NCBI GenBank assembly: GCA_030158485.1
Contig: JAOASS010000016.1
Location: 233,398-297,397 of the forward strand
Direction of reading: 5' to 3'
DNA: 64,000 nt
Source of the DNA: Pseudobdellovibrionaceae bacterium
GTDB taxonomy: Bacteria; Bdellovibrionota; Bdellovibrionia; Bdellovibrionales; Bdellovibrionaceae
Shown here: positions 12,782-58,462 of the stretch, in pieces
Layout: each line of letters begins with the position of its first letter
Position numbering within the stretch: the first letter of the stretch is position 1
Position numbers and translations under genes: made by a program
The notes under the pieces: generated by a model
What the model saw: the letters and a program-made list of their open reading frames with translations, nothing else
Databases searched by the model: none
What the model was told of the DNA's origin: nothing

Positions 12782-13954
12782 ATGCTTTATGGACCATTTA
12801 ATCGAAATTGGAAAAATTATGGTCGCATTAAAAATATCAAAATAATAGGACCTCATATTATATTTGATTTAAATGAAAAAACTTTTCAAGTTTTTTACAA
12901 AGAAGAATTTTCTTCGATTGAAAAAAATGATTGGGTTGCAATTGATGAAAATAGTCAACTTATTAGACTTTCACCTTCTTTGCGAGCGCCACTAACGACT
13001 GAATTAAATAATGAAAAAATAAAAACATGGAATCATTTTTTTCAATTTATACGTTATGTTTTTCAAGAAAAATTATTTAGAGAAATCCAAACACCAACTC
13101 TTGTCCCGTGTCCTGGGACAGAGCCTAGCCTGGATGTTTTTAATCTAGATCTCAAAATTGGAAATCAAATTCAAAAAGTTTTTTTACCAACTTCCCCAGA
13201 GCTGCATTTGAAAAAAGCCCTGACGATAGGCTTTGATAAAATCTATGAAATTGCAAAGTGTTATCGAAATAACGAAGTGACAGATCTTCATCAGCCGGAA
13301 TTTTGGATGCTTGAATGGTATAGAAGTTTTGCAAATCTCTTTGATCTCCAAGCTGATGTTGTTCAGCTTATTTACAAGCTTTGTGACGAGTTCAAACAGA
13401 CTCGCCCTGATGTTCAGTGTTTTACAATTCGCCAGCTTTTTAAAAAACATTTAAATTTTGATTTAAAGCCTGATACGTCTTTTGACGAGCTCAAGAAATT
13501 AGCTTTGCAGAACCAATTAAGAATAAATGATTCTTTCACGATTGATGACCTTTTTTTTATTTTAATGCTTGAAAAAATAGAGCCTTCTTTGCCAAAAGAA
13601 GTTTTAGTTTTCGTTGAAAAGTACCCGCCGTATCAGGCCGCTTTGGCTCGAAAAGATCATGAAGGATGGGCGGAAAGATTCGAAGTTTATTGGAAGGGCA
13701 TGGAGCTTGCGAATGCGTTTGATGAACTTAACGATCCTGTCGAGCAAAGAAAAAGGTCTGTTGACGATTTGGCAAAAAGAGAAAGTCGAAATGCTATTCA
13801 ATTGGATGAAAGTTTTTTTCAAGCCCTTGAAAGTGGTATGCCACCGTCTGCGGGAATCGCTCTGGGCTTAGAAAGATTATTTATGGCCTTAGTAAATATT
13901 CAAAAAATTGATGAACTTCGACTTTTTCCTATTAAAACTGAAAAAAGGTTCTAA
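12782..13954 (+). CDS. epmA: EpmA-like elongation factor P lysyl-ligase (class II LysRS-related)
   Basis: This 390-residue protein carries the class II lysyl-tRNA synthetase catalytic core: TPTLVPCPGTEPSLDVF, FLPTSPELHLKKAL, KIYEIAKCYRNNEVTDLHQPEF (motif 2) and GIALGLERLFMAL (motif 3). It lacks the full anticodon-binding OB domain. That is the EpmA (PoxA/GenX) layout, which attaches beta-lysine to EF-P. EpmA is usually about 325 residues. Here about 65 extra N-terminal residues resemble a reduced OB-like segment. The lysine aminomutase EpmB and EF-P are not in the window. A lysyl-tRNA synthetase paralogue with another target is the alternative. Confidence 0.85.
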   Translation: MLYGPFNRNWKNYGRIKNIKIIGPHIIFDLNEKTFQVFYKEEFSSIEKNDWVAIDENSQLIRLSPSLRAPLTTELNNEKIKTWNHFFQFIRYVFQEKLFREIQTPTLVPCPGTEPSLDVFNLDLKIGNQIQKVFLPTSPELHLKKALTIGFDKIYEIAKCYRNNEVTDLHQPEFWMLEWYRSFANLFDLQADVVQLIYKLCDEFKQTRPDVQCFTIRQLFKKHLNFDLKPDTSFDELKKLALQNQLRINDSFTIDDLFFILMLEKIEPSLPKEVLVFVEKYPPYQAALARKDHEGWAERFEVYWKGMELANAFDELNDPVEQRKRSVDDLAKRESRNAIQLDESFFQALESGMPPSAGIALGLERLFMALVNIQKIDELRLFPIKTEKRF

Positions 13955-22220: not shown

Positions 22221-22276
22221 CAGGTGTATGAGGTCGGTTACAGCGTGTCATCTTGATCTCAAATTTGAGGTCTTTA

Positions 22277-22318
22277 AAAATTAAAAACCCACATTTTTAG
22301 ATGTGGGTTTTTAATTTT
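22277..22318. terminator. Bidirectional intrinsic terminator
   Basis: An 18-bp perfect stem (22277-22294 with 22301-22318) surrounds a six-base loop, with GC-rich CCCACAT/ATGTGGG at the centre and A/T-runs at both ends. It serves the convergent heptose kinase and Cys-repeat lipoprotein genes. Confidence 0.9.
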
Positions 22319-22340
22319 CTGATATTTTAAAATAAAGAAC

Positions 22341-22913
22341 TTACCAGCCGTAATATTGAGGATGATAATTTTGGTTGTAATAAGGATTTGACCAATAAGA
22401 ATTGTAATTTTGCTGAGGAATGTACGGATTGTACCCGCCACCAAACTGTAAGTTAAAGCCAGCATTAAAACCAGAGTTTATGCCGCCATTGTAGCTGCCA
22501 CCGTTATTGTAGCCATATCCTGGGTAGTAACCTGAATTGTATCCACTATTATATCCACCGTTGTAACCATTGTTATAGCCCGAGTTATAGCTATCAGCTT
22601 GAATACATTGGTTATTGTATAAAGCTTGTCCAATCTGACAGTGTCCTTGGTGCAAACACGTGCCAACTTGCGAACTATAGACCATGCCTTGACTGCACTG
22701 ATTTGAAGTTGCGAGCACGCACTGACCGTTATTGTATTGAGCTTGTCCAACTGGGCAGTGACCTTGTTGTAAGCATCCATACTGAGTATTAACAAGTCCT
22801 GAAGAGCAAATGCCGACAGTACCGCCACTTTTGTTGCTGCTTCCGCTTTTGCCGCAACCTGCAACTAAGATAGCGAGAGTCGCACCAATCAAATACAAAT
22901 ACGAGTTTTTCAT
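22341..22913 (-). CDS. Lipoprotein with duplicated Cys module and Tyr/Asn/Gly-rich repeat tail
   Basis: This 190-residue protein begins with a lipoprotein signal (LAILVAGC, Cys20). Residues about 36-105 contain two imperfect copies of a ~30-residue unit, CLQQGHCPVGQAQYNNGQC and CLHQGHCQIGQALYNNQC, with regularly spaced Cys suggesting disulphides. From about residue 107 on the chain is low-complexity, built of YNSGYNNGY-like repeats ending in YHPQYYGW. No known catalytic domain is seen. Aromatic, Gly/Asn-rich tails of this kind are usually disordered or self-associating on the cell surface. It is a single-gene unit, and its own leader is divergent from rlmN. Confidence 0.75.
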   Translation of the reverse strand: MKNSYLYLIGATLAILVAGCGKSGSSNKSGGTVGICSSGLVNTQYGCLQQGHCPVGQAQYNNGQCVLATSNQCSQGMVYSSQVGTCLHQGHCQIGQALYNNQCIQADSYNSGYNNGYNGGYNSGYNSGYYPGYGYNNGGSYNGGINSGFNAGFNLQFGGGYNPYIPQQNYNSYWSNPYYNQNYHPQYYGW

Positions 22914-30717: not shown

Positions 30718-30914
30718 GACCACAAGCACGGACAGATATTAAAACAATTTTAAAAAATGCAGACGAAGTCGAAGTTCCCATGGACCCGGGTTACTATCAT
30801 AGGTTACACGATAAAATTATGATGAAGATCGATGATCAAGTTGTGGAAGATAAATCCATAATTGTTCCGATGAAACGATTAAAACAACAAAGAGAGCAGC
30901 TTAAGAAGTATTAA
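30714..30914 (+). CDS. Small protein coupled to the ECF sigma factor
   Basis: This 66-residue protein overlaps the sigma stop as ATGA and has a GGAGG site, so the two are made together. It is short and charged (start RPQARTDIKTILKNADEVE, then MDPGYYHRLHDKIMMKIDDQ), with no membrane segment and no CxxC or HxxxCxxC zinc motif. The FYxRLxxKI-like segment resembles the N-terminal cytoplasmic part of some anti-sigma factors. It could be a minimal or truncated anti-sigma, but this is inference. A strong terminator follows. Confidence 0.7.
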   Translation: MRPQARTDIKTILKNADEVEVPMDPGYYHRLHDKIMMKIDDQVVEDKSIIVPMKRLKQQREQLKKY

Positions 30915-30939
30915 GCCTGTTAGCAGGATATATTGTTTT

Positions 30940-30990
30940 AAAAGGCAGAAGATCTCTGAAATTAAAATTCAAGAGGTCTTTTGCCTTTTT
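30940..30990 (+). terminator. Strong intrinsic terminator of the sigma operon
   Basis: An 18-bp stem with two G-T pairs (30940-30957 with 30972-30989) around a 14-base loop ends in a T-run. It lies about 25 bases after the small coupled gene. Confidence 0.9.
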
Positions 30991-31029
30991 ATTTTGAGGT
31001 CTCTGCACATGTCATGATAGCTTTTTTCC

Positions 31030-32022
31030 ATGACTGAATTTCTTTTTTTTAGACATGGTGAAACGGAATGGAATCGTAAAGGTATATTTCAAGGTCACAC
31101 TGACATTCCACTAAATGAAAAAGGGAAACAGCAAGCTCAGCATTTAGCTGAAAAAGTCAGACATTGGAAGCCAGATGTCATTGTTTCTTCTGATTTGACT
31201 CGTGCTTTTTATACAGTCGAGTACTGTCGAGCAGATTGGAAAGTTCCCATTCACACTTCGGCTGATTTACGAGAAATGCATCTAGGCAAGGCAGAAGGAT
31301 TGCATCGAGATGAAGTGATGAAATTAGTAGGAGATGATCTTTGGACAAAATGGCTTGGTCACAGTCATCAAGACGAAAATTTTAGTTTCCCCGGCGGCGA
31401 AACTAAAATACAAGCCCGAGCCCGAGCTCTCAATTATTTAGAGAAATTTGCTAAAGCCAATTCAAAATACAAAAGAATTGCAGTTTCAACCCATGGTGGA
31501 ATTTTAAAAAGAGTAACCCATGGATTAAAAGGAGTTCCAGAAGAAGGAGTTCCAATTCCTAATTGTGTCACATATAGACTTAATTTTGATGGCTATAACT
31601 GGCACTTCATTCCAGTGAGAGAGCGCGCTTCAGCGGTTGTGCGTGCAGAAAATAAGATGCTCACTTTTTTGGGAATCGATCCCTTTAGTTCTCAAGAGTA
31701 TCACTTTCTTCCAGGCGGAAAAATTGAGCCTCAGGAATCAGTGGAAGATTGTGCTATCCGTGAAACTTTGGAAGAAACAGGTTATAAAGTCAGTCCTCAT
31801 CAAAATATTATCACCAGCGAATATGACTTTAAATGGAATAATCAGGATGTTTGGTGCCGAACTCATTTTGTAAAAGCAGATCTTAAATCAGATTTTCATA
31901 ATCCCAAAAAAGTTAAAGATGCAGATTATAATAAAGGCGTCAGGTGGGTGCCACAAGATGATTTCGCCTCTTATTTTCATTATAATGAATCAATTTTTGA
32001 AAGTATTAAAAAATTAATTTAA
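31030..32022 (+). CDS. Fusion of histidine phosphatase and Nudix hydrolase
   Basis: This 330-residue protein joins two enzymes. Residues 1-200 are a phosphoglycerate-mutase-like histidine phosphatase with RHGETEWN (8-15), SDLTRAFYT, the acid-region E in REMHLGKAEG, and STHGG with the second His. Residues about 205-330 are a Nudix hydrolase with box GGKIEPQESVEDCAIRETLEETGY, intact Glu residues. The combination suggests stepwise hydrolysis: the Nudix domain releasing a monophosphate that the phosphatase then dephosphorylates. Substrate unknown. No ribosome binding site is visible at the ATG. The gene is convergent with the next lipoprotein gene and overlaps its end by 4 bases. Confidence 0.88.
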   Translation: MTEFLFFRHGETEWNRKGIFQGHTDIPLNEKGKQQAQHLAEKVRHWKPDVIVSSDLTRAFYTVEYCRADWKVPIHTSADLREMHLGKAEGLHRDEVMKLVGDDLWTKWLGHSHQDENFSFPGGETKIQARARALNYLEKFAKANSKYKRIAVSTHGGILKRVTHGLKGVPEEGVPIPNCVTYRLNFDGYNWHFIPVRERASAVVRAENKMLTFLGIDPFSSQEYHFLPGGKIEPQESVEDCAIRETLEETGYKVSPHQNIITSEYDFKWNNQDVWCRTHFVKADLKSDFHNPKKVKDADYNKGVRWVPQDDFASYFHYNESIFESIKKLI

Positions 32023-38739: not shown

Positions 38740-38904
38740 AAAGAAGCCTCCTTAAAAATGCTTACTTAATTTTATGAATGAGTGAAACACCACCAATCTT
38801 ACACAAGCCAATATACAATGCGAAGGAAAAATGTACTGCGACGTAAGTCGAGCTCTCAACTATCCTGACTTGGTCAAGAAGCCGACTGGGATTAATCTAT
38901 TGAA

Positions 38905-39492
38905 ATGAAAATATTCAAGACGACTCTTCTGACTTTAAGCTTTGCAACGTTGTGCCATGCGGGGCTTCTTTTTCAATACCATGAACTGACTTTAATGGAT
39001 CTCGACCAAATGAACAAATTGGTACAAGACAAAATCAAAGAGTCCAAAAAAGCCGATGCGAAAACAGTTCCACTTAAAGAAGGATTACAGGCCGTCTACT
39101 CAAGGCCGGATGTCGACAGAATGATTGATAAAGTTGTTTCGCCATTAAGAGCCGAGTTGCAAGACCTTGAGCAGTACGATCGGATCCTGATGGATCTAAC
39201 GGACGAGGCCCTTAATGCACTCAAACATACTCGAAACTTTAAGCCTGCAGTCCAAGTGACGTATGCAATTTTTCTTGAAAATTTAATGGCAGATGCCAGA
39301 CGTTTAGCTGAAACAGAAAATAGTTTAGAAAGAAAAATTCTAAAAAAAATTGAAAAAGCCCAAATTAAGGTCACAAAAGCAGCTGAAAACGAGAGACGCG
39401 TTCGGAGTTTATCGGAAGCGCGGTCACCATCTGATATCGCCTCAGATATTTTAGAGTCCCTTCAGAAGCTTGAAAAAGCAAAAGCAGACTAA
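38905..39492 (+). CDS. Secreted helical protein of unknown function
   Basis: I do not recognise this 195-residue protein. It has a signal peptide (KTTLLTLSFATLCHAG) and then is nearly all predicted charged helix, with a coiled-coil-like C-terminal third (LERKILKKIEKAQIKVTKAAENERRVR). It is probably periplasmic. No ribosome binding site is obvious before the ATG. It precedes the small-protein/cupredoxin/CpaF cassette by 85 bases on the same strand and may be part of it. Confidence 0.6.
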   Translation: MKIFKTTLLTLSFATLCHAGLLFQYHELTLMDLDQMNKLVQDKIKESKKADAKTVPLKEGLQAVYSRPDVDRMIDKVVSPLRAELQDLEQYDRILMDLTDEALNALKHTRNFKPAVQVTYAIFLENLMADARRLAETENSLERKILKKIEKAQIKVTKAAENERRVRSLSEARSPSDIASDILESLQKLEKAKAD

Positions 39493-56259: not shown

Positions 56260-56337
56260 GTCAGATCAGCCTTATAAAAAATCATTTCATGCATTATTTG
56301 GTTTCCATACAATTGCAAATCCGATACTTTGTTGCCT

Positions 56338-57816
56338 ATGTCGGAAATCAGACCAATTATTATTCAAGGTGGCATGGGTATCGGTGTTTCTAACTATCGG
56401 TTAGCAAATGCAGTATCTCGAGCTGGTGGGCTAGGTGTTGTTTCGGGAAGTGGACTTAATTCAGTTCTCATACGCCGTCTTCAGGATGGGGATCCAGGTG
56501 GTCATTGTCGCCGCGCGATGTCTGCTTTTCCAATTCAATCTGTTGTTCAAAATATTATTGAAAAGTATTTTTTAGCAGAGGGTCGTAAAGGTGCTGCTTA
56601 TAAAAGGGCTCCACTTTTCAGTCCTAAGTTGTCTCAAGAAATTGTAGAACAAACCGTTGTCGCTAACTTTGTCGAAGTTTGGTTGGCGAAAGAAGGTCAT
56701 TCGGGTCTTGTAGGTCTTAATCTTTTAGAAAAGATTATTCTTCCGAATATCCCAAGCCTTTATGGCGCAATGTTAGCCGGTGTTGATTACGTTTTGATGG
56801 GCGCTGGTATTCCGCGGGAAATTCCTGGCGTTTTAGATAAATTATCAAACCATGAAGAAGCTTTTTTAAAGCTTCCAACAGACGGAGCCTCTTCGGAAGA
56901 TAATTTTAAAGTGATTTTTGATCCTAAAAATTATTTTCAATTTGATAACTGGGCTCCTTTAAAGCGGCCAGAATTTTTAGCGATTGTTTCTTCAGCTGTT
57001 CTGGCTTTGAATTTAGCTAAAAAATCGACAGGCAAAGTGAATGGTTTTATCATCGAACATTGGACAGCTGGCGGTCACAATGCTCCGCCTCGTGGCGCAC
57101 TTCAGTTAGATGAATTAGGTCAACCCATATACGGAGCTCGCGATGAAGTTGATTTTGCTAAATTCTGTGAAATGGGTTTGCCATTTTGGCTGGCTGGGTC
57201 TTGCGGCAGTCCTGAAAAAGTAACTGAAGCAATGAAATTAGGAGCTCAAGGGGTGCAAGTCGGAACGGCTTTTGCCTTCAGTGATGAGTCCGGCATGAGC
57301 GAATCTGTTAAAGCTTCTGTTCGCCAAAGATTACAAAAAAATGAAAATGTGACTGTTTACACTGACCCTGTAGCTTCACCATCGGGCTTTCCTTTTAAAG
57401 TTATTGAAAAAGAAAATACTCTTTTTGATAAAAAAGTTTATGAAGCTCGCCCAAGAAAATGTGATTTAGGTTACCTTCGTTCATCTTATAAAAAAGAAGA
57501 TGGTACTTTAGGCCAACGATGCGCTTCTGAACCAATTGATACATACCTTAAAAAAGGTGGAACAATCGAAGACACCGTTGGACGTAAATGTCTTTGCAAT
57601 GGTTTGTTTGCAGCAGTTGATCAAGCTCAGTTACAAGATAATGGTTACGTTGAAGCGATTATTATTACTGCGGGTGATGATCTTCAAAGCATTAAACGAT
57701 TTGTTGAAAATAAAAATCATTACTCGGCAGCCGAAGTTGTTCAGGTTTTGCAAAGAGCCGCTACGACAATTCAAGCATTTGAAATTAAAAATCATGCACC
57801 AGTTGCGCAGATTTGA
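56338..57816 (+). CDS. Nitronate monooxygenase-family flavoenzyme (large form)
   Basis: The ATG at 56338 gives 492 residues of an FMN-binding TIM-barrel related to nitronate monooxygenase and the PfaD enoyl reductase: IIIQGGMGIGVSNYRLANAVSRAGGLGVVSGSG, EHWTAGGHNAPPRG, and LAGSCGSPEKVTEAMKLGAQGVQVGTAF. A C-terminal extension has four Cys (KCDLGYLR, QRCASEP, RKCLCNG) that could bind metal. It sits between kdsD and kdsC but its function is not linked to KDO by sequence. There is no ribosome binding site. A strong terminator follows. Confidence 0.82.
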   Translation: MSEIRPIIIQGGMGIGVSNYRLANAVSRAGGLGVVSGSGLNSVLIRRLQDGDPGGHCRRAMSAFPIQSVVQNIIEKYFLAEGRKGAAYKRAPLFSPKLSQEIVEQTVVANFVEVWLAKEGHSGLVGLNLLEKIILPNIPSLYGAMLAGVDYVLMGAGIPREIPGVLDKLSNHEEAFLKLPTDGASSEDNFKVIFDPKNYFQFDNWAPLKRPEFLAIVSSAVLALNLAKKSTGKVNGFIIEHWTAGGHNAPPRGALQLDELGQPIYGARDEVDFAKFCEMGLPFWLAGSCGSPEKVTEAMKLGAQGVQVGTAFAFSDESGMSESVKASVRQRLQKNENVTVYTDPVASPSGFPFKVIEKENTLFDKKVYEARPRKCDLGYLRSSYKKEDGTLGQRCASEPIDTYLKKGGTIEDTVGRKCLCNGLFAAVDQAQLQDNGYVEAIIITAGDDLQSIKRFVENKNHYSAAEVVQVLQRAATTIQAFEIKNHAPVAQI

Positions 57817-57820
57817 TTTT

Positions 57821-57850
57821 AAATTCCAAGACATAAGTCTTGGAATTTTC
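57821..57850 (+). terminator. Intrinsic terminator of the kdsD-region operon
   Basis: A 12-bp perfect stem (57821-57832 with 57837-57848) around ATAA ends in a T-run, five bases after the stop of the flavoenzyme gene. Confidence 0.88.
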
Positions 57851-57855
57851 TAACT

Positions 57856-57873
57856 AATCAAATTATTTTGATT
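57856..57873. promoter_or_regulatory. Palindrome upstream of kdsC
   Basis: AATCAAATTATTTTGATT is a 7-bp inverted repeat with a four-base centre, between the terminator and the structured kdsC leader. It is a candidate operator. Confidence 0.4.
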
Positions 57874-57883
57874 TCACAGCCAT

Positions 57884-57959
57884 TATCTATCGCCTAAGGT
57901 CGGGGCATCACTTGCCCCATGACGCCAGAGTTCTCAAAATGAGAGGGTGGCGATAGATA
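57884..57959 (+). ncRNA. Candidate structured leader (three-helix junction) covering the kdsC start
   Basis: TATCTATCGCC (57884-57894) pairs with GGCGATAGATA (57949-57959). Inside are two hairpins: GGGGCA/TGCCCC (57902-57907 and 57913-57918) and TCTCA/TGAGA (57932-57936 and 57940-57944). The outer stem covers the bases right after the likely GTG start, so its folding could block translation. A seven-codon frame ATG...TGA (57919-57942) lies inside. It does not match a riboswitch class I know. Confidence 0.4.
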
Positions 57960-58462
57960 TCCAAAGGTTGAAAAACATTAAGCTTTTAATTCTCGATGTG
58001 GACGGTGTGATGACCGATACCCGCATTTGGCTGGATACAAATGGCCAGTGGCGAAGATTTTATTCAATACGTGATGGTGTTGGAATTATTCGTCTGATTG
58101 AAGCGGGTTACAAACTGGCAGTTATCACGGGGTCAGTGGCCGAAGATATTCAACTTAGAGTTAAGAAGTTGGGAATTCATTATTTTTATGAAGGTGCCCT
58201 GGAAAAAGAAACCTCATTCCAAGATTTAAAAATCAAAACACAATTATCTGCTCAGGAAATGGCTTTTGTCGGAGATGATATTTTTGATATTCCATTGCTG
58301 CGTGAAGTGGGTTTTGCAGCGACTGTTCCCGAAGCTGTTGATGAAGTTAAAGAAGTTGTAGCTTACGTGACAGCTTGTGCTGGCGGCATGGGAGCAGTCA
58401 GAGAAGTTTGTGATGTTATTTTTAAGTATGGGAGCTTATCGAATAAGCTTTTGGAGAAATAA
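57947..58462 (+). CDS. kdsC: KDO-8-phosphate phosphatase KdsC
   Basis: This 171-residue HAD phosphatase releases KDO from KDO-8-P. Motif I LLILDVDGVMTDTRIW (with both Asp), motif II AVITGSV, and motif IV MAFVGDDIFDIPLLREVG are complete, and there is no cap domain, as in KdsC. The tail VTACAGGMGAVREVCDVI is the family ending. GTG at 57947 is the first in-frame start after a stop. Its GAGAGG purine run touches the start codon directly, and the region is folded, so initiation is unusual. Confidence 0.92.
   Translation: MAIDIQRLKNIKLLILDVDGVMTDTRIWLDTNGQWRRFYSIRDGVGIIRLIEAGYKLAVITGSVAEDIQLRVKKLGIHYFYEGALEKETSFQDLKIKTQLSAQEMAFVGDDIFDIPLLREVGFAATVPEAVDEVKEVVAYVTACAGGMGAVREVCDVIFKYGSLSNKLLEK

What the first reader, a model, noticed from the sequence alone, without database searches (positions are those of the whole stretch)
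57817..57965. Three-helix RNA-like structure over the kdsC start
Seen: an 11-bp outer stem (57884-57894 with 57949-57959), two inner hairpins (57902-57918 and 57932-57944), an 18-base palindrome upstream and a terminator before it. The outer stem includes the bases just after the likely GTG start. Inference: a folded leader that controls KDO phosphatase output, or a binding site for an unknown regulator. It matches no riboswitch class I can name. It also contains a seven-codon frame (57919-57942).
Basis: partly seen in the sequence, partly recalled or inferred. Interest (0 to 1): 0.55.

Follow-up and report, generated by a model that had tools for sequence, protein, structure and literature searches.

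The report
Conserved kdsC promoter with operator palindrome
The hairpin-like DNA in front of this lipopolysaccharide gene is most likely not a regulatory RNA but a conserved promoter whose messenger starts at the start codon itself, with a palindrome upstream that an unidentified regulator probably binds.

Summary
The inverted repeats are real and fold strongly (z -6.9), but "folded leader RNA" is the wrong reading. Across the family, kdsC is preceded by TTGCCC-N17-CACAAT-N6-GTG: a sigma70-type promoter placed so that transcription should begin at the start codon (leaderless mRNA). A relaxed form occurs in 44 of 57 family loci, none in 200 shuffled sets. In the window it is TTGCCC 57912-57917, CAAAAT 57935-57940, GTG 57947. 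The hairpins are thus promoter DNA; the outer stem's left arm should not be in the transcript. That stem is unique to this genome among 56 loci, and the -35 hairpin shows no covariation. What is conserved upstream is a palindrome, GAC-N4-GTC, in 40 of 57 loci and 13 of 18 genera (shuffles 1.2). Its distance to the promoter follows a 10.45-bp period, as for a protein on one face of the DNA. The palindrome also precedes a second window gene (38905), flagellin genes and a TetR-type gene, but is not common genome-wide. The regulator is unidentified.

The parts
57947..58462 (+). kdsC (KDO-8-phosphate phosphatase), GTG start, predicted leaderless; predicted +1 = 57947
   Evidence: TIGR01670 KdsC family above its cut-off; start codon fixed by promoter alignment in relatives
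57912..57917 (+). -35 box TTGCCC
   Evidence: TTGC at this place in 36 of 57 (strict form) and TTG in 44 of 57 (relaxed form) family loci; CTTGC invariant in 24 g6 sequences
57935..57940 (+). -10 box CAAAAT (relatives mostly CACAAT or AACAAT)
   Evidence: 17-nt spacer and 6-nt gap to the start conserved
57827..57842 (.). operator-like palindrome CAAGACATAAGTCTTG (family form CNNGACNWWNGTCNNG), centre at -112.5 from the predicted +1
   Evidence: GACN4GTC in 40 of 57 family loci, 1.2 expected; other triplets at most 10 of 57, other gap lengths at most 4 of 57; consensus from 47 distinct sites
57821..57848 (.). 12-bp stem palindrome with 4-base centre containing the operator; may also terminate the upstream transcript
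   Evidence: sequence; not called as a terminator by the scan
57892..57901 (.). degenerate second copy GCCTAAGGTC, centre at -50.5; possible counterpart of the box next to the -35 in g6 relatives (inferred)
   Evidence: alignment by eye with g6 and MAFFT with same-genus G002; one mismatch to GACN4GTC, weak on its own
57884..57894 (.). left arm of the outer inverted repeat, upstream of the predicted start; lineage-specific
   Evidence: 11-nt complement only in the window, 4-7 nt in the 55 other loci scored
57949..57959 (.). right arm of the outer inverted repeat, coding sequence of the first kdsC codons
57901..57918 (.). dyad overlapping the -35 box
   Evidence: no covariation in g6 relatives
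57932..57944 (.). dyad overlapping the -10 box
   Evidence: TTCTCANAATGA shared by three same-genus genomes; dyad kept in G001, broken in G002
38840..38907 (+). second promoter of the same build: GACGTAAGTC 38840-38849 (centre -60.5), TTGGTC 38870-38875, N17, TAATCT 38893-38898, 6 nt, ATG 38905
   Evidence: same composite pattern before the orthologue in G001, G002, G083

Best explanation
The region is the kdsC promoter. Sigma70-type RNA polymerase binds TTGCCC (57912) and CAAAAT (57935) and starts at or within a base of the GTG start codon (57947), giving a leaderless mRNA. An unidentified dimeric DNA-binding regulator binds the palindrome CNNGACNWWNGTCNNG centred near -112.5; in relatives the centre lies near -50, -60, -71, -82, -92 or further, mostly in whole turns of the helix, which suits an activator touching RNA polymerase or looping. 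Shown: sequence conservation, spacing, lack of covariation, phasing. Inferred: the transcript start, leaderless translation, the regulator and the sign of its action.
For: Promoter-to-start arrangement in 44 of 57 family loci (relaxed) or 36 of 57 (strict), neither seen in 200 shuffled sets; Shine-Dalgarno-like 4-mers at -15..-5 in 0 of 44. The strict pattern has 71 hits in 66 family genomes, 36 of them at kdsC, against 9 hits of the backward control. Where the start codon lies further downstream (L021, L146-L148) the CACAAT box stays. In same-genus G002 kdsC is a short remnant behind the intact promoter; in G001 it is gone, yet CACAAT and a start codon 6 nt later remain (read by eye). GACN4GTC in 40 of 57 loci versus 1.2 in shuffles and 0 of 171 control windows, 13 of 18 genera. 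Period 10.45 bp, p 0.0002 for 15 positions within 100 bp, p 0.0026 for all 18. Fixed positions of the palindrome alternate with free ones and its flanks are often not complementary, typical of protein contacts, not of pairing.
Against: No transcript data. 13 of 57 loci lack the arrangement and 17 of 57 lack GACN4GTC (one of them, L143, has only 54 bases to search). The window's own promoter scores low against the E. coli consensus (8 of 12 by my count, cut at 9, does not list it), its -10 departs from the family form, and the strict pattern's only hit in G000 is not kdsC. In G001 no TTG stands 17 nt before the -10. Three g6 species have the palindrome at -40, off the lattice, and the common g6 position -48 is 1-2 bp off; the 100-bp cut was chosen after seeing the data; 8 of the 18 positions come from one genus. 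Genome-wide counts of CNNGACNWWNGTCNNG against the backward control are 10/8, 7/11, 10/10, 9/20 and 17/7 in five genomes, so a large regulon is unlikely.
Confidence: 0.78

Rival explanations
1. A folded 5' leader RNA (riboswitch-like) controls kdsC translation or transcription.
For: Strong fold, z -6.9.
Against: Promoter and predicted start lie inside the structure; no Rfam match at gathering score in the window, and below it only weak ones to unrelated families (best E 0.18); no covariation; outer stem only in the window among 56 loci.
Confidence: 0.05
2. The outer stem protects against read-through: RNA running in from the upstream gene folds the kdsC start codon into the stem and is not translated, while the promoter's own leaderless RNA lacks the left arm and is. 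Works like the read-through protection of IS10 transposase (recalled; the search did not return a paper on it that I read).
For: Left arm upstream of, right arm downstream of the predicted start; start region in read-through RNA less unpaired than with shuffled upstream sequence (0.13 against 0.37, sd 0.12). An extra gene (56329-57816) lies directly upstream in this genome.
Against: The effect is not general: mean z over 56 loci is -0.08, with 4 of 56 below -1.5, the window among them; 10 inverted repeats of this size occur in the window.
Confidence: 0.12
3. In relatives the GC-rich dyad at the -35, followed by a T-rich spacer, is a terminator for the upstream gene that overlaps the promoter.
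For: Several g6 sequences fold a hairpin there with a T-rich stretch behind it.
Against: Mean z -0.69, 17 of 45 below -1; no covariation; the window's spacer has no T-run.
Confidence: 0.15
4. The GAC-N4-GTC regulator is a CRP/FNR-family class I activator.
For: GA-N6-TC layout; in four spellings searched, the only two library papers holding a GAC-N4-GTC string describe HcpR sites, wyTTGACnnnnGTCAArw (PMC1274295), and an Anr box (PMC4974557; Anr as an FNR homologue is recalled); centres near -61.5, -71.5, -81.5, -91.5 match class I CRP sites (PMC10882989).
Against: G031 has two sites before kdsC (L020) but no HTH_Crp_2 (PF13545) match at E 0.001; G000 has one. Other CRP-type HTH models were not searched. 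The flanks are not TT/AA.
Confidence: 0.2
5. The regulator is the TetR-family protein encoded at G000:C16 (L311), whose start codon abuts the same palindrome (CATGACATAAGTCCGG; CGTGACATAAGTCCGG in G002), as in an autoregulated repressor.
For: Site centre 10 nt before its ATG in both genomes; TetR domains PF00440 and PF13972.
Confidence: 0.15

Closest known systems
Leaderless bacterial genes with a -10 box just before the start codon (e.g. Deinococcus-Thermus, PMC12340547; survey PMC3160421; search listing and opening lines of the abstracts seen)
   Same: -10 box a few bases before the start codon, no Shine-Dalgarno sequence
   Different: here a -35 box is conserved too, and a phased palindrome lies upstream
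Class I CRP-dependent promoters (PMC10882989, passages seen)
   Same: palindrome upstream of the -35 mostly in whole helical turns, several centres at about -61.5, -71.5, -81.5, -91.5
   Different: palindrome is CNNGACNWWNGTCNNG, not the CRP site; one genome with sites lacks a PF13545 match
HcpR sites of delta-proteobacteria, wyTTGACnnnnGTCAArw (PMC1274295, passages seen)
   Same: GAC-N4-GTC core
   Different: TT/AA flanks not seen here; target genes differ
Bdellovibrio attack-phase FliA promoters, TTAAG-N16-CCGATA (PMC3627812, passages seen)
   Same: same order of bacteria (inferred); the flagellin promoter next to the palindrome array looks FliA-like
   Different: kdsC uses TTGCCC-N17-CACAAT; that study mapped attack-phase promoters only

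Membership tests
Leaderless sigma70-type promoter | -35 and -10 hexamers 16-18 bp apart | tested here: met
   TTGCCC-N17-CAAAAT; relaxed form in 44 of 57 loci; matches to the E. coli consensus are modest (one search does not list it)
Leaderless sigma70-type promoter | -10 ends 5-8 nt before the start codon and no Shine-Dalgarno | tested here: met
   6-nt gap; Shine-Dalgarno-like 4-mers at -15..-5 in 0 of 44; the window's GAGG directly abuts GTG, too close to serve
Leaderless sigma70-type promoter | mapped 5' end at the start codon | not testable with these tools
   no RNA data held
Structured cis-regulatory leader RNA (riboswitch class) | lies downstream of the transcription start | tested here: not met
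   predicted start at 57947, after most of the structure; prediction, not mapping
Structured cis-regulatory leader RNA (riboswitch class) | covariation in relatives | tested here: not met
   -35 hairpin: 73.4% of cells paired against 73.5% in shuffles; the outer stem is not found in 55 other loci
Structured cis-regulatory leader RNA (riboswitch class) | match to an Rfam family | tested here: not met
   0 matches at gathering score in the window
Class I activator-dependent promoter | palindrome upstream of -35 in helical phase | tested here: met
   with the exceptions named under evidence against
Class I activator-dependent promoter | activator bound and needed | not testable with these tools
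   regulator unknown
CRP/FNR-family operator | CRP/FNR protein present in genomes with the site | tested here: not met
   PF13545 in 5 of 6 genomes; none in G031, which has two sites before kdsC; only this one HTH model was searched

The most novel reading that the evidence does not exclude
A family-wide, so far undescribed regulator of predatory bacteria and their relatives reads CNNGACNWWNGTCNNG and ties lipopolysaccharide (KDO) synthesis to flagellin and other envelope genes, with leaderless promoters at some of its targets.
Probability: 0.35. Interest if true: 0.6.

Novelty: new member of a known kind. Interest (0 to 1): 0.4.

Why it matters
It removes a false RNA candidate and replaces it with a testable regulatory site. 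The attack-phase promoter map of Bdellovibrio (PMC3627812, passages seen) did not cover growth-phase promoters; a kdsC promoter kept across the family, with a phased palindrome that also stands before flagellin genes, gives a bait for pulling out a regulator of envelope building. It also shows a promoter outliving its gene (G001, G002).

Tried and rejected
Repeat or mobile element: single copy in its own genome, other matches 14-20 nt. Known RNA family: none at gathering score. RNA hairpin at the -35 kept by selection: no covariation; weak z-scores. GACNTNNGTC looked enriched in the window (15 matches, palindromic ones counted twice, against 3.6), but GACNTAAGTC is not above its backward control in 11 of 12 genomes, and intergenic GACN4GTC in 864 kb is raised about threefold in G000 but not in G007 (3 against 0.9, 5 against 1.6, 2 against 1.7, 3 against 2.0, window 3 against 0.45). 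AAGTCYTGTATC: 1-3 hits per genome, at kdsC in 9 of 10 g6 genomes and not in G000; the backward control has 0-5. CRP/FNR as the general regulator: weakened. Start-codon masking in read-through RNA: not general. A scan of the 864 kb for palindrome, promoter and leaderless start found 3 sites, two of them G007 kdsC and gene 38905; its range was too short to catch the window's own kdsC site. A first promoter pattern had one N too many and was redone. In 12 order-level loci outside the family and in four named loci (L058, L059, L062, L063) no GACN4GTC stands before kdsC. L143 was left out (occlusion part) and 96 for want of upstream sequence.

Searches for print: Bdellovibrio with leaderless (7 papers listed), Bdellovibrio with promoter or start-site terms (20 of 1,025 listed), Bdellovibrio with kdsC (1 paper), GAC-N4-GTC strings (2 papers), Bdellovibrio with TetR/flagellin/operator (8 of 253 listed). 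Nothing in the titles, abstract openings and passages that I saw describes this site; only the open-licence library was searched.

Full report
Setting. The window is G000:C16:233398-297397 of a 2.48-Mb genome. The gene at 57947 is KdsC by TIGR01670, above its cut-off; a CTP_transf_3 (kdsB-like) gene, pyrG and a KpsF/GutQ-type (kdsD) gene lie upstream. One order-level genome, G037, has a contig of the same length as a public record titled Bdellovibrionaceae (279292 bases), so the order is probably that of Bdellovibrio; this is inferred.

Observation. The stems, palindromes and frame reported are in the sequence and the region folds far better than its shuffles (z -6.9). Window-wide it is one of several such places.

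Promoter. kdsC was found in 57 of 66 family genomes (loci) and I read upstream in these 57. The block TTGC-N2-N17-[CA]ACAAT-N6-[AG]TG sits in frame at the start in 36 of 57 loci, a relaxed form in 44 of 57; neither arose in 200 sets of dinucleotide shuffles. By genus the relaxed form is in 11 of 18. In the 24 g6 sequences CTTGC, the A..AAT of the -10 and GTG are invariant. None of the 44 has a Shine-Dalgarno-like 4-mer at -15..-5. A whole-genome search with the strict pattern gives 71 hits in 66 family genomes (44 genomes with a hit), 36 of them at kdsC by coordinates, against 9 for the backward control; the single G000 hit is elsewhere, because the window's -10 is CAAAAT. From the usual distance between -10 box and start site, transcription should begin at the start codon: a leaderless mRNA. 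That step is inferred. In L021 and L146-L148 the CACAAT box is kept while the start codon lies further downstream, which argues that the box is a promoter and not part of the gene's start.

Gene loss. Read by eye, in same-genus G002 the promoter (TTGCCC-N17-CAGAAT-GAAAGA-ATG) is followed by about twenty kdsC-like codons and then the next gene; in G001 kdsC is gone and CACAAT-GAGAGA-ATG directly precedes the next gene, without a TTG at the -35 place. The promoter, or at least its -10, outlived the gene.

RNA reading. The predicted start lies after the left arm of the outer stem, so the transcript would hold only the right arm, which is coding sequence. None of the 55 other family loci scored has more than 7 nt of complement at that place; the window has 11. 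The hairpin at the -35, which many g6 relatives can fold, shows no covariation: 73.4% of cells paired against 73.5% in shuffles; RNAalifold's own consensus has energy -0.28 and one pair of eight with a change on both sides. No Rfam family matches at gathering score.

Operator. GAC-N4-GTC occurs between -170 and -40 of the kdsC start in 40 of 57 loci; 100 shuffles give 1.2 on average and 4 at most, and 0 of 171 windows inside kdsC have it. It is in 13 of 18 genera; no other triplet palindrome exceeds 10 of 57 and no other gap length exceeds 4 of 57. Forty-seven distinct sites give CNNGACNWWNGTCNNG (the outer C in 57 of 94 half-sites), with free positions between fixed ones and flanks that are often not complementary. 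The centres relative to the -35 box are -15, -24 to -26, -36, -40, -46, -48, -56, -67, -77/-78, -88 and beyond. Eighteen genus-distinct positions follow a period near 10.5 bp (p 0.0026; 15 within 100 bp, p 0.0002, best period 10.45). Off-lattice are three g6 species at -40; twelve g6 species at -48 are 1-2 bp off. Sites in loci without a called promoter were left out, and g3 supplies 8 of the 18. With the start codon as +1 the centres fall near -50.5, -60.5, -71.5, -81.5 to -83.5, -91.5, -102.5, -112.5; the window's is -112.5. A protein bound on one face of the helix is the simplest reading.

Other targets. In the window, gene 38905 (195 aa, no Pfam or NCBIfam match) has GACGTAAGTC at -60.5, TTGGTC-N17-TAATCT, 6 nt and ATG. 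A fixed-spacing composite pattern hits 12 of 66 genomes; in G000, G001, G002 and G083 the hit precedes this gene's orthologue; four g6 genomes share one different site; four are single; the backward control has 5 hits. Of 30 orthologue loci read, 6 have a full GACN4GTC near the start. Four copies 22-23 bp apart precede a flagellin gene in G000, with a similar cluster in G001, next to a FliA-like promoter; a further flagellin-like G000 locus has one copy 364 bp upstream. A copy abuts the start of a TetR-family gene in G000 and G002. Against a large regulon: genome-wide counts and backward controls are 10/8, 7/11, 10/10, 9/20 and 17/7 in G000, G001, G002, G025 and G031.

Regulator. CRP/FNR proteins fit the core and the positions, but G031, with two sites, has no PF13545 match. 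The TetR-family protein is a guess from one neighbouring site. I leave the regulator open.

Outer stem. The most interesting use would be silencing of read-through RNA from the upstream gene, which here is an extra one (the nitronate-monooxygenase/FabK-like gene 56329-57816; the relatives found in 4 of 7 other genomes lie elsewhere). The stem is seen in one genome only and could be chance.

Verdict. An ordinary kind of element, a promoter with a regulator site, well conserved in the family and not described in the papers and listings that I saw.

Noticed in passing
L316 978-1054 (G000:C9) and L320 (G001:C13): Four GACN4GTC palindromes 22-23 bp apart upstream of a flagellin gene with a FliA-like promoter; a similar, less regular cluster in G001.
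   Followed up: partly
L311 965-980 (G000:C16) and L312 821-836 (G002): CNNGACNWWNGTCNNG palindrome abutting the ATG of a TetR-family regulator gene.
   Followed up: partly
L197 about 2260-2360 (G002) and L196 about 2840-2900 (G001), both minus strand: kdsC reduced to a short remnant or lost in two same-genus genomes while its promoter, or the -10 of it, survives; G001 keeps a distant KdsC-like HAD phosphatase (L198 252-773, minus).
   Followed up: partly
56329-57816: Nitronate-monooxygenase/FabK-like gene between kdsD and kdsC in this genome; the four other genomes in which a relative was found carry it elsewhere.
   Followed up: partly
38905-39492: Conserved protein of 195 aa (secreted, judged by eye from its N-terminus) without Pfam or NCBIfam match, in 63 of 66 family genomes, with the same promoter build in the window genome.
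   Followed up: partly
22221-22360 and 30901-31040: The strongest GC-corrected folds of the window's + strand, stronger than the kdsC one.
   Followed up: no
L236 about 13185-13210 (G007:C1 about 833185): Two GACN4GTC sites 15 bp apart shortly upstream of an ORF with a PilM-like N-terminus (judged by eye).
   Followed up: no
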